This document shows, one piece after another, positions 1-16,307 of a stretch of DNA of 21,072 nucleotides (within the stretch, counting starts at the first letter, position 1; each line of letters starts with the position of its first letter). The translations under genes and the position numbers were made by a program. This stretch comes from a virus. Where the stretch lies: positions 1 through 21,072 of IMG/VR virus record IMGVR_UViG_3300005593_000013; one strand, 5' to 3'. The notes under the pieces are model-generated. The model was not told where the DNA came from and ran no database searches. It saw only the letters and a list, made by a program, of their open reading frames with translations.

Positions 1-162
1 CTTATCTAATTCATTTGATCTTAAAGTAACATCAACTGTGGCTTCATGACCGTGAAGATGTCGGCACTTACATTGACTATCTAAACTAAACTCTTTATTT
101 AGTTCCTGTGTCCAGACTCTATGACCATAACAAAAATTAAACGATTTACTTATCTCCCACAT
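1..162 (-). CDS. queD: QueD-like 6-carboxytetrahydropterin synthase, N-terminal part
   Basis: The first 54 codons of a gene that runs off the left edge. The frame is open from ATG 162-160 to base 1. Residues 8-14 (FNFCYGH) and the Cys33-x3-His37-Gly-His39 cluster match the zinc-binding His and CxxxHGH motif of the QueD/6-pyruvoyltetrahydropterin synthase family. QueD turns dihydroneopterin triphosphate into 6-carboxytetrahydropterin on the way to preQ0, the precursor of queuosine and of 7-deazaguanine bases that some phages put in their DNA to resist restriction. The start overlaps the end of the DnaE-like gene by 17 bases, so the two are probably translated from one mRNA. The catalytic His/Asp/Glu part lies outside the window. 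A folate or biopterin role for another family member cannot be excluded. Confidence 0.8.
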   Translation of the reverse strand, partial: MWEISKSFNFCYGHRVWTQELNKEFSLDSQCKCRHLHGHEATVDVTLRSNELDK

Positions 163-727
163 CACATACCTCCTTTAACTCCTCACATATTAAATTCATC
201 TGTACAGTAATTGCTACAGCATACGCAATTGCATGAGCTTTCTTAAAGTAGTACTCACCACTCTCTGGACGAATCCATACAGTTTCACTAATCTCTGTCC
301 AATTCTTTCCTAATAGGTGCCTTTTCCCCGGGCGTATCATTGCTAGTATCATTGCTAGTTCTTCTACTGACTTTGGTTTCATCTTCTTTAGAATTGTGCT
401 GTGTTCGCCTACGTGAAACAATTGCTTTACGAAGTCTTGATGCTCTAGAAGTTCCCATAATGGCTCCTTTTGTAGTAAGGTATTTAAATGATTTTCATCT
501 TTGATAGCTTGATAAAGGCTTACATTAAGAAAGTCTAATTTGAAATATCCTCTAGAATCTGCAGATTTATAATCAACAGTTGACATGTTATCTACAGGAT
601 TATTTGGAATTTCCGTAAAGTAAACTCCTGTGTTATGCTTTTTATTTGAGTTTAATTTCGCAATACGATGTTTTAATTTACTTAAAATAATACTTCTGTC
701 TGCAAAATCAATATCAATATCAGGCAT
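146..727 (-). CDS. Miniature DnaE-like (C-family polymerase palm) protein, 193 aa
   Basis: The sequence opens with MPDIDIDF, matching the DnaE palm motif PDFDVDF; Asp5 and Asp7 line up with E. coli D401 and D403. KHNTGV (30-35) resembles DnaE HAAGV. KS-(x)6-YFKLDFL (54-67) matches the strand with the third catalytic aspartate (KFDFLG, E. coli D555; here Asp65). Further on, KPKSVEELAMILAMIRPG resembles the DnaE KP..FED..A..A.YRPG segment, and YYFKKAHAIAYA resembles FNKSHAAAYA. The PHP, beta-binding, OB and tau-binding regions are absent, and about 100 residues are missing between the first two motifs, giving 193 aa against roughly 1,160. From memory, similar short proteins recur in marine T4-like phages, usually as unknowns. 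Whether it polymerises, binds DNA or only regulates is unknown. ATG 727-725 overlaps the upstream stop by one base (TAATG). Confidence 0.8.
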   Translation of the reverse strand: MPDIDIDFADRSIILSKLKHRIAKLNSNKKHNTGVYFTEIPNNPVDNMSTVDYKSADSRGYFKLDFLNVSLYQAIKDENHLNTLLQKEPLWELLEHQDFVKQLFHVGEHSTILKKMKPKSVEELAMILAMIRPGKRHLLGKNWTEISETVWIRPESGEYYFKKAHAIAYAVAITVQMNLICEELKEVCDVGDK

Positions 728-1413
728 TATAAATTACTTTCCTTTGCTACTTCTTTAACAAGTTCAACATCAGCAACATGTCTTTTAAAACGCATAGCCC
801 AATGTTTTGGGTCCATTACATGATATACTATTTGTAATTGTTCATCATTAAATTTACTTAACATCTGTTTACCACTATTAGTATTAAGTACTAACCATGG
901 ACTTATTTTACCATCTTTAATATCTTGACAAGCACGATTTAAACTTGAATAAGAAAAATAATGATTCCATTGAGCTTCTTTTTCAATACCCCAATCCATC
1001 ATAGTTTTAATAGATCTTTCAAGTGCAGTTTCTACGCTTTCTTTAAGTATTAATTCTAATGCATATTTTTCATATAATTCTTCTTTACACCAATGGTCTA
1101 ATTTAACTCCACTAGTAACAACATAATCTACATACTTGTCAGGATATAAAGGTCGTACATTACTGACAAAACTGCCAAACTTGACAAAAGCATTATAGTA
1201 AGGACTATCACAAAATTCTTCATACGTTTTTGTTCCTTTGTATTTCTGGCACAACTGATAGAATCTTATAAATGTAAGATGTCCTAACTGTACTCTCTTT
1301 TCGTCTTTTTGAACATGTCGTCTTTTCTTTTCACACATATGAACAGCAAGAGTATTTTCCCTTGTGTATCCTGTATTACAATACTTGCAGATATATGGTT
1401 TAGAATTTGACAT
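727..1413 (-). CDS. CCHC zinc-finger protein of unknown function, 228 aa
   Basis: The N-terminus carries a finger-like element, Cys9-x2-Cys12-x12-His25-x-Cys27, followed by a basic stretch (EKKRRH), which suggests nucleic-acid binding. The remaining roughly 190 residues are mostly helical-looking, with no motif I recognise. The frame extends upstream to a TTG at 1479 and an ATG at 1443. ATG 1413 is preferred because the finger starts just after it, a GAG lies 7 bases upstream, and overlap with the preceding gene falls to 14 bases. From memory, homologues occur in marine T4-like phages beside the same two neighbours, the 153-aa protein and the DnaE-like protein. That suggests one conserved module, perhaps in replication or gene regulation. 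The function is inference. Confidence 0.8.
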   Translation of the reverse strand: MSNSKPYICKYCNTGYTRENTLAVHMCEKKRRHVQKDEKRVQLGHLTFIRFYQLCQKYKGTKTYEEFCDSPYYNAFVKFGSFVSNVRPLYPDKYVDYVVTSGVKLDHWCKEELYEKYALELILKESVETALERSIKTMMDWGIEKEAQWNHYFSYSSLNRACQDIKDGKISPWLVLNTNSGKQMLSKFNDEQLQIVYHVMDPKHWAMRFKRHVADVELVKEVAKESNL

Positions 1414-1861
1414 CTTTTTTCTCAAGCCCAAGGTCTTGGACATATTGTTTAAGTTCCGCTTTTGTAGATATTGTAGCAAGTAATTCTACCTCATCTTCTT
1501 TCATGTTAGGAAATATTGTTTCTAAAAACTTTGTTGCTGGAGTGGCTTTTGCTTTCTTTTGCCCAATCCATCCATGCCTACGTGGTTCTCTTTTAGCATT
1601 ATGAGTACCACATAATGTTAGCCATTGTAGCTTTGGATGTTTCGCAATAGCCATATAATTTTTGTTATAGTATTCGTTAGTTAACAAGATTGCTAACTCT
1701 TTTGCATCGCGGCTACCTTCGACAATACTTGCGTATCTGTTTAAAAGCCAAAAGGATAATTCTTTCCTTTCTTCTTCACTCCACTCGTCATACGCCGATT
1801 TTGCATCACCGTCCATACAAGCAAAGACTTCTGATAATGGTAACTTTCTTTTAGAACTCAT
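1400..1861 (-). CDS. Conserved hypothetical protein, 153 aa, first gene of the DnaE-like module
   Basis: No known domain is recognised. It is charged and Trp-rich in the middle, with NEYYNKNY, HPKLQWL and HGWIGQKK as its most distinctive segments. The last 40 residues read as two helices ending KKDVKF. The general plan (about 150 aa, a basic middle, a helical tail) loosely recalls the T4 clamp-loader small subunit gp62, but I see no convincing alignment, and no gp44 gene lies upstream as it would in T4. ATG 1861-1859 begins only 6 bases after the TATAAT of a strong sigma70-type promoter, so the mRNA should be leaderless. It is the first gene of an overlapping three- or four-gene unit that includes the CCHC finger and DnaE-like proteins. 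Confidence 0.8.
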   Translation of the reverse strand: MSSKRKLPLSEVFACMDGDAKSAYDEWSEEERKELSFWLLNRYASIVEGSRDAKELAILLTNEYYNKNYMAIAKHPKLQWLTLCGTHNAKREPRRHGWIGQKKAKATPATKFLETIFPNMKEDEVELLATISTKAELKQYVQDLGLEKKDVKF

Positions 1862-14879: not shown

Positions 14880-15568
14880 GATTGTTCCTTTCTACAGTAA
14901 ATTGCTGTTTGGTCAATAGTATGTATCTTCATAGTGTCTCCGAAGACGTCATGAAAGGCTTTTTTACTACCTTGCCAACTATTATAGTCATCAATTACAC
15001 ATATACCACCTATTGATAACTTAGGCCAAAGTACTTGTAATTCTTTATATGTACTTTCATACCAATCAGTATCAAGCCGAAGAAGTGCAATATTAGTTGG
15101 TACATTTCCCGGATTCTCAAGTGTTTTACATACGTCACCAACAACATACTTGGTTTGATTTTGTGGAATAAATGGATTTATATTTTCAACAACTTCGTTT
15201 AATTCTGCTCGACACCATTGGTCATAACCGTTTTTTGCTTTAGTACTTTGGTGTGCAAATCCATAAGAACCATCAGCATTGATCCTATAATCATCTTCAG
15301 TTGGTGAAGTCATACCTTCGAATGTATCATACAACCAAAACTGTCTTTTACTTTTTGTATTACCTAACCAAGCACTAATTATTTGTCCGCCTTTATAAAC
15401 ACCACATTCTACTATAGCACCTTCAATTTTTTCTTTGTCTAATTCTTTAATAGTACGAAACGTATGTAAAAGTCTTTCCCCACTTGTCATAGTATAAGGT
15501 TTACATACGTTTAGCATGTTCCATTCATCTTCTGTAAACTCTTCTCTATGATCTTCGTTCAATATCAT
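14876..15568 (-). CDS. TylF/MycF-type sugar O-methyltransferase, 230 aa
   Basis: The TylF family is recognisable: YTMTSGERLLHTFRTIKEL, the SAM motif VECGVYKGG (53-61), FWLYDTFEGM, RLDTDWYESTYKELQVLWPKL with the metal-binding Asp residues, and GGICVIDDYNSW. TylF and MycF methylate deoxysugar hydroxyls on macrolides in a Mg-dependent manner; relatives in phages and surface-polysaccharide loci probably cap or decorate sugars. Length is close to normal for the family. The start overlaps the nucleotidyltransferase-cupin gene by 23 bases and its stop overlaps the GT8-like gene, so the three are likely made together. Confidence 0.9.
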   Translation of the reverse strand: MILNEDHREEFTEDEWNMLNVCKPYTMTSGERLLHTFRTIKELDKEKIEGAIVECGVYKGGQIISAWLGNTKSKRQFWLYDTFEGMTSPTEDDYRINADGSYGFAHQSTKAKNGYDQWCRAELNEVVENINPFIPQNQTKYVVGDVCKTLENPGNVPTNIALLRLDTDWYESTYKELQVLWPKLSIGGICVIDDYNSWQGSKKAFHDVFGDTMKIHTIDQTAIYCRKEQS

Positions 15569-16307
15569 CTTCTACGCACCTATCACCGTATTGTACTTCT
15601 AATATATGACACGGTTCTTTTGTTTCATTACACCCTTGATGCCATTGCTGTTTGTTAATTCTAATTGTTTGATGTTCTTTAAACTTTCCATATTCTTCGT
15701 AATCAGATGAAACATTTATTGTATTCATTGTACACGTTCCTTTAAGAATATACCAATGTTCTGATCTATCTTGATGACGTTGCATACTTAAACTTTTACC
15801 AGGTTCTATTACTAATTCTTTAACTTTGTATCCTGCTTTGTCGTCTAGTACTCTATACCATCCCCAGTTACGTATTGTTTTAGGATTCTTCCATTCTTCT
15901 AATATCCAACTACTAGAATTTTGTTTAACTTCACCACCGACCCCAAAAACAAAATCTACGTTAGGCCATTCATCCATTTCGGGAATATTTTCTTTAGTTC
16001 TATCTCCACCATTTGCAAATATTATTTTTGATCCTATTGATGTTGATGCAATTAATTTAGAAATAGCATTGTTGGCTGTGTCATCTTCGTCATTAAAGTC
16101 CATAACCCAGTCAACATTTTTTAAATTTTTTACTATTGCAATACGTTCTTTTAACGGCATAAACGCACGACCTTTTTTACGTACTAACCATGCATCAGAA
16201 TTAATTCCAACAACTAGTTGGTCGCCTAGTTTTTTAGCCGCTTCAAAATAAGCTATATGGCCCGAGTGAAGTGGATCGAATCCACCGGTTACTAATACAA
16301 TTGTCAT
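15546..16307 (-). CDS. Nucleotidyltransferase-cupin fusion for sugar activation, 253 aa
   Basis: Residues 1-130 are a cytidylyltransferase-like domain: TGGFDPLHSGH with His14-Ser-Gly-His17 (the HxGH motif), VVGINSDAWLVRKKGR and ANGGDR, as in the HldE/RfaE C-terminal domain that makes ADP-heptose. Residues from 145 are a type II phosphomannose isomerase/ManC-like cupin: GWYRVLDD, GKSLSMQRHQDRSEHWYILKG, ending VQYGDRCVEDDIERR. The fusion implies both activation of a sugar phosphate and an isomerase or epimerase step. The HldE kinase half is missing and no kinase is seen, so the sugar phosphate would have to come from the host. Upstream of ATG 16307 no good ribosome-binding site is visible. Confidence 0.85.
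   Translation of the reverse strand: MTIVLVTGGFDPLHSGHIAYFEAAKKLGDQLVVGINSDAWLVRKKGRAFMPLKERIAIVKNLKNVDWVMDFNDEDDTANNAISKLIASTSIGSKIIFANGGDRTKENIPEMDEWPNVDFVFGVGGEVKQNSSSWILEEWKNPKTIRNWGWYRVLDDKAGYKVKELVIEPGKSLSMQRHQDRSEHWYILKGTCTMNTINVSSDYEEYGKFKEHQTIRINKQQWHQGCNETKEPCHILEVQYGDRCVEDDIERRS

What the first reader, a model, noticed from the sequence alone, without database searches (positions are those of the whole stretch)
146..727. A 193-aa protein keeps all three catalytic-aspartate motifs of DnaE
The protein contains PDIDIDF, KHNTGV, a K-x-D-F-L strand with the third aspartate, an A.IRPG segment and FKKAHAIAYA, in the same order as in bacterial DnaE. About 970 residues of the usual polymerase are gone. 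Such a stripped palm-and-fingers core is far smaller than known C-family polymerases. It may be a minimal nucleotidyltransferase, a decoy for the host clamp loader or clamp, or a DNA-binding remnant under selection.
Basis: partly seen in the sequence, partly recalled or inferred. Interest (0 to 1): 0.78.

Follow-up and report, generated by a model that had tools for sequence, protein, structure and literature searches.

The report
Half of a split mini DNA polymerase
This gene from an uncultured ocean phage makes only one half of a very small bacterial-type DNA polymerase, and its relatives make the other half from a separate gene far away in the genome; the arrangement was described by others in 2021 but I found no experimental test of it.

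Summary
Window 146-727 (-) encodes a 193-aa protein with the DnaE palm/finger motifs in order. The catalytic triad (E. coli D401, D403, D555) maps to D3, D5 and D65, not D5/D7/D65. These are invariant in 177 relatives, and dN/dS is about 0.11. The AlphaFold model (pLDDT 92) aligns clearly only with DNA polymerase III alpha/PolC (E. coli 400-784).

The missing piece is the GRGS nucleotide-binding half of the palm (E. coli 278-393). It is a second small gene elsewhere in the genome: 62 of 63 phage records that carry this gene carry both, the exception being a 109-kb fragment, and so do 10 of 10 large uncultured contigs checked. The partner ends where this protein begins. So this is the C-half of a two-gene minimal polymerase, beside a family-B replicase. 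The partner is not in this 21-kb fragment.

Iyer et al. 2021 (PMC7824862) already described this split minimal Pol III alpha in group 2.2 jumbo phages; the window is a marine member. I add structural complementarity, co-occurrence, loss of the thumb and the fingers RR...KK motif, a conserved upstream gene pair, and a single-chain ~550-aa mini-DnaE in some relatives. Decoy and remnant readings are disfavoured. Activity is inferred, not shown.

The parts
146..727 (-). C-half of the split minimal DNA polymerase III alpha (PHROG 11778), 193 aa
   Evidence: AF2 model; fold match
719..721 (-). Asp3 codon, counterpart of E. coli DnaE D401
   Evidence: 177/177 D
713..715 (-). Asp5 codon, counterpart of E. 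coli DnaE D403
   Evidence: 177/177 D
623..640 (-). KHNTGV motif (E. coli KHAGGV 510-515); the ~80-residue thumb that precedes it in DnaE is absent
   Evidence: DxD-to-motif spacing about 27-31 residues against ~109 in E. coli
533..541 (-). K63-x-D65, counterpart of E. coli K553 and catalytic D555
   Evidence: 177/177 each
326..337 (-). IRPG finger segment (E. coli FRPG 638-641)
218..247 (-). FKKAHAIAYA end-of-fingers motif (E. coli FNKSHSAAYA 756-765)
727..1413 (-). Upstream gene, PHROG 11058 (weak C2H2-like zinc finger), overlapping the C-half start (TAATG); likely ATG at 1413, longest ORF to 1479; upstream in 162/165 relatives
1400..1861 (-). Next upstream gene, PHROG 11758 relative, unknown function; present in 161/165 relatives

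Best explanation
The protein is the C-terminal half of a heterodimeric minimal C-family DNA polymerase. It carries the metal-binding DxD strand, the third-aspartate strand and a shortened fingers region. The N-terminal half, encoded at a distant locus, supplies the GRGS loop that binds the nucleotide triphosphate and ends at the helix that in DnaE directly precedes the DxD strand. Shown: the two genes are homologous to adjacent, non-overlapping stretches of DnaE, co-occur almost perfectly, and keep their catalytic residues. Inferred: the two proteins assemble into one pol-beta-like palm and add nucleotides. Further inferred: since the same genomes encode a full family-B replicase, the enzyme is accessory, most likely doing short synthesis such as gap filling, repair, recombination-linked extension or lagging-strand patches, with other phage proteins supplying the DNA grip that the missing thumb would give.
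For: Order and invariance of DnaE motifs: D3, D5, D7, H31, G34, K63, D65 in 177/177. Model with pLDDT 92 clearly matching DnaE/PolC only (Taq 461-870 Z 9.5; E. coli 400-784 Z 8.4). Partner N: PHROG 11127; matches PF07733 positions ~19-97; all 89 ORFs end 0-6 residues after the [ED]FL[KRN] helix and no ORF holds both halves. Partner model pLDDT 93 matches DnaE/PolC (E. coli 278-393, Z 10-12, rmsd 2.1-2.6), and 9/9 PDB hits of the partner profile are Pol III alpha (E. coli 320-392). G-x-G-R-G-S invariant in 89 N proteins. Co-occurrence: 62/63 phage records and 10/10 contigs of 228 kb or more. Family-B polymerase in the same genomes: 8/8 complete or near-complete phage records and both 236-kb marine contigs. 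Purifying selection, median dN/dS 0.11. Neighbours are replication/recombination genes: UvsW, UvsX, primase, gp41. Independent published analysis reached the same split (PMC7824862).
Against: No biochemical or genetic data in the papers searched. The thumb is missing and so is the fingers LRRAMGKK segment (E. coli 708-715; 0/177 have a similar motif), which I recall from ternary complexes as helping hold the triphosphate, so canonical polymerase activity is not assured. The partner gene is not in the 21-kb window, so for this particular phage its presence is inferred from relatives. Assembly of the two halves was not modelled.
Confidence: 0.8

Rival explanations
1. The N+C pair forms the palm but is not a templated DNA polymerase: a nucleotidyltransferase of another kind, for example untemplated end addition, nucleotide transfer to a protein or nucleic-acid end repair.
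For: Thumb absent and the RR...KK fingers helix absent while all metal- and GRGS-type residues are kept; the phages already have a replicase.
Against: Fingers motifs RP(G)K and FKKxHAxxYA are kept, as expected if template/nucleotide contacts matter; best relatives are all replicative DnaE/PolC; the gene sits among replication genes.
Confidence: 0.15
2. The protein no longer catalyses and acts as a decoy or structural adaptor for the host or phage clamp loader or clamp.
For: No direct evidence; DnaE fragments could in principle bind replisome parts.
Against: The DnaE parts that bind clamp, tau and epsilon (C-terminal domains and PHP, by established knowledge) are the ones missing, while the active site is invariant in 177 sequences and its complementary half is kept alongside.
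Confidence: 0.03
3. A degenerate DNA-binding remnant of a host dnaE gene.
For: Small size.
Against: Median dN/dS 0.11, conservation across phages of alpha- and gammaproteobacteria and across ocean samples, split point shared by all.
Confidence: 0.02

Closest known systems
Split minimal DNA polymerase III alpha of group 2.2 jumbo phages (Iyer et al. 2021, Viruses 13:63, PMC7824862)
   Different: Nothing essential; this one is from an uncultured marine phage fragment in which only the C-half is seen. That paper does not, in the sections read, mention the single-chain ~550-aa form found here in relatives.
Bacterial DnaE / DNA polymerase III alpha (E. coli, T. aquaticus, M. tuberculosis)
   Same: Palm strands, DxD and third Asp, fingers motifs, in the same order.
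   Different: PHP, thumb, most of the fingers, helix-hairpin-helix, OB and clamp/tau binding parts are absent; the palm is cut between the GRGS half and the DxD half.
Phage DnaE such as Streptomyces phage and Pseudomonas PB1-type 'DNA polymerase III alpha' (PHROG 405)
   Same: Next-best matches below the family in the phage collection.
   Different: Single-chain enzymes covering the whole palm.
Single-chain ~550-aa PHP-less mini-DnaE in marine contigs (seen here, L189:1693-3348)
   Same: Small, GRGS-type loop plus DxD plus third Asp, in phages that also carry the C-half.
   Different: Unsplit, keeps part of the thumb region, the RR...KK motif and a C-terminal extension.

Membership tests
Split minimal Pol III alpha (C-half), PHROG 11778 | Full-length match to the family profile | tested here: met
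   E 4e-66, residues 3-183 against profile 8-194 of 197
Split minimal Pol III alpha (C-half), PHROG 11778 | Catalytic Asp triad conserved | tested here: met
   D3, D5, D65 invariant in 177
Split minimal Pol III alpha (C-half), PHROG 11778 | Separate N-half gene with GRGS in the same genome | tested here: inconclusive
   Not in the 21-kb window, nor in 28-kb contigs of the closest relatives; present in 62/63 phage records and 10/10 large contigs of relatives
Split minimal Pol III alpha (C-half), PHROG 11778 | Family-B replicase in the same genome | tested here: inconclusive
   None recognised among the window ORFs, which are a fragment; present in all 8 phage records and the two 236-kb marine relatives searched; window has gp32, UvsX, UvsW
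Split minimal Pol III alpha (C-half), PHROG 11778 | N and C proteins form an active complex | not testable with these tools
   needs protein work
Bacterial DnaE (single-chain C-family polymerase) | Palm fold with DxD and third Asp | tested here: met
Bacterial DnaE (single-chain C-family polymerase) | GRGS loop in the same chain | tested here: not met
   absent from the C proteins; 0 ORFs hold both halves
Bacterial DnaE (single-chain C-family polymerase) | Thumb between DxD and KHxxGV | tested here: not met
   spacing about 27-31 residues against ~109 in E. coli
Bacterial DnaE (single-chain C-family polymerase) | PHP and clamp-binding domains | tested here: not met
   193-aa chain; Pfam finds only a weak finger match

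The most novel reading that the evidence does not exclude
A two-gene polymerase palm without a thumb is an active accessory enzyme that needs the conserved upstream gene pair (PHROG 11058 and 11758) as its DNA-holding subunits, and some marine phages run three DNA polymerases at once: family B, the split mini-Pol III and the single-chain ~550-aa mini-Pol III.
Probability: 0.2. Interest if true: 0.7.

Novelty: new member of a known kind. Interest (0 to 1): 0.45.

Why it matters
A catalytic palm shared between two unlinked genes and stripped of its thumb would be an exceptionally small C-family polymerase and a test of how little of DnaE is needed for catalysis. The family is common in ocean phages: a marine jumbo phage survey found PF07733, the Pfam that matches the N-half, in about half of one large cluster (PMC9123017). 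What it does beside a family-B replicase is open and directly testable in culturable phages such as RaK2, 121Q, GAP32 or PA5oct.

Tried and rejected
Inteins or trans-splicing to join the halves: N proteins end 0-6 residues after the palm helix and C proteins begin at or within ~20 residues of the DxD strand, leaving no room for intein halves. N-half inside the window: no match better than E 0.7. Fused or adjacent N and C: none; they lie 11 to 224 kb apart in linear record coordinates. Weak N-profile hits in several marine contigs turned out to be a separate single-chain mini-DnaE, not the N-half. Whether phages with the single-chain form also carry the N-half could not be settled: those contigs are at most 101 kb. 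The 484-kb uncultured phage LR756508 with a single-chain relative gave no C-half match. Pfam alone nearly misses the protein (finger domain E 0.0027, below cut-off). No Rfam family or tRNA in the window. One literature query failed on a term-length rule. No paper with a biochemical test was found; the library lacks most subscription journals.

Full report
Observation. The ORF at 146-727 on the minus strand encodes 193 aa, and all quoted DnaE motifs are there in order. Aligned with E. coli DnaE, the catalytic aspartates are D3, D5 and D65; D7 is the third Asp of the PDxDxDF strand. The family is PHROG 11778, annotated 'DNA polymerase' (E 4e-66). It occurs in 63 phage records and at least 544 uncultured viral stretches. 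In 177 aligned members D3, D5, D7, H31, G34, K63 and D65 never vary, and R132, K135, H165 and Y169 are unchanged in every sequence long enough to show them. Median dN/dS over 83 close pairs is 0.11.

Homology to DnaE. Below the family itself, the next tblastn matches in all phage records are mostly DnaE-type polymerases. A family profile against PDB sequences returns Pol III alpha in 9 of 10 hits. The AlphaFold2 model from a 44-sequence alignment has mean pLDDT 92, and its clear structural matches are all Pol III alpha or PolC-type polymerases: Taq 461-870 (Z 9.5, 192 aligned, rmsd 4.4), E. coli 400-784 (Z 8.4); the next unrelated fold is Z 3.1.

What is missing, and where it is. The chain begins at MPDIDIDF, so the GRGS half of the palm that precedes it in DnaE is absent. 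Searching eight phage records for the Pfam palm family PF07733 found a second small gene in every one, matching only profile positions ~16-98. In the ones read it encodes ~170-190 aa ending in GxGRGSSxxSYxLxLIGxHxxxSxxYxLDxxEFL[KRN] and is PHROG 11127. All 89 such ORFs end 0-6 residues after that helix; none continues into DIDIDF. Its model (pLDDT 93) matches DnaE/PolC, at E. coli 278-393 with rmsd 2.1. The two proteins therefore cover E. coli 278-393 and 400-784, adjoining and not overlapping.

Co-occurrence. 62 of the 63 phage records with the C-half also have the N-half; the exception is a 109-kb fragment, PP728206 (the equality rests on listed accessions plus organism tallies, because three rows were unlisted in each search). 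The one N hit outside this set is a 10-kb fecal record at E 1e-3. Among uncultured contigs of 228 kb or more that were checked, 10 of 10 have both. The genes lie 11 to 224 kb apart in linear coordinates. All eight phage records and both 236-kb marine contigs searched also have a family-B polymerase. The window, a 21-kb virus fragment with gp32-, UvsX- and UvsW-type genes, does not contain the N-half.

Anatomy. Between the DxD strand and KHxxGV there are about 27-31 residues instead of ~109, so the thumb is gone; the fingers segment between RPG and FxKxHAxxYA shrinks from ~114 to ~26 residues and loses the LRRAMGKK motif. That loss is the main reason for caution about templated polymerisation. 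Upstream, a PHROG 11058 gene (weak zinc-finger signal) and a PHROG 11758 relative are present in 162 and 161 of 165 loci; in the window the PHROG 11058 stop overlaps the C-half start (TAATG). They are candidate partners, by synteny only.

Known work. Iyer et al. [quoted passage not shown] Earlier genome papers noted a truncated 172-aa Pol III alpha, which is the N-half (CBB, PMC5259590), or a Pol III alpha without comment (Atu_ph07, PMC6102473). A marine survey (PMC9123017) found PF07733 in 51.9% of one large marine jumbo-phage cluster. No experimental test was found.

Side result. Several marine contigs carry, downstream of the C-half (4.5-9 kb) and next to gp41, a single-chain ~550-aa DnaE-like protein with its own GRGS-type loop, DVDIDF, third Asp and RR...KK motif, and no PHP domain. 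21 of 24 such loci with enough upstream sequence have the C-half nearby, but only 3 of 44 C-loci from the first scan with at least 5.8 kb downstream show it, so it is a subset feature or often lies just beyond the stretch held.

Verdict. A real, conserved, probably catalytic half-enzyme; the idea is already published, the member is new, and the mechanism is untested.

Noticed in passing
L189:1693-3348 (+) and relatives L294-L373: Single-chain ~550-aa PHP-less DnaE-like protein right after gp41 helicase in marine T4-like contigs, usually 4.5-9 kb downstream of the split C-half; possible third DNA polymerase in those phages.
   Followed up: partly
window 727-1861 (-): Gene pair PHROG 11058 and PHROG 11758 upstream of the C-half in almost all relatives; functions unknown, candidate subunits of the enzyme.
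   Followed up: partly
L187 and L188, 1450-2829: The N-half gene is followed by a ~127-aa gene, a GroES/gp31-like co-chaperonin gene and a MazG-like gene; the first two also follow it in RaK2, GAP32, Phosso and PAC2.
   Followed up: no
PP408249.1 202949-206726 (L094, L096): The family-B polymerase of the PA5oct-type phage PAC2 is matched in two separate frames (825 and 379 aa), suggesting an insertion or a split gene there too.
   Followed up: no
window 1-165 (-) and 15546-16307 (-): QueD-like 6-pyruvoyl-tetrahydropterin synthase gene cut by the window end; 15546-16307 holds a fused cytidylyltransferase-like and mannose-6-phosphate isomerase-type cupin protein.
   Followed up: no
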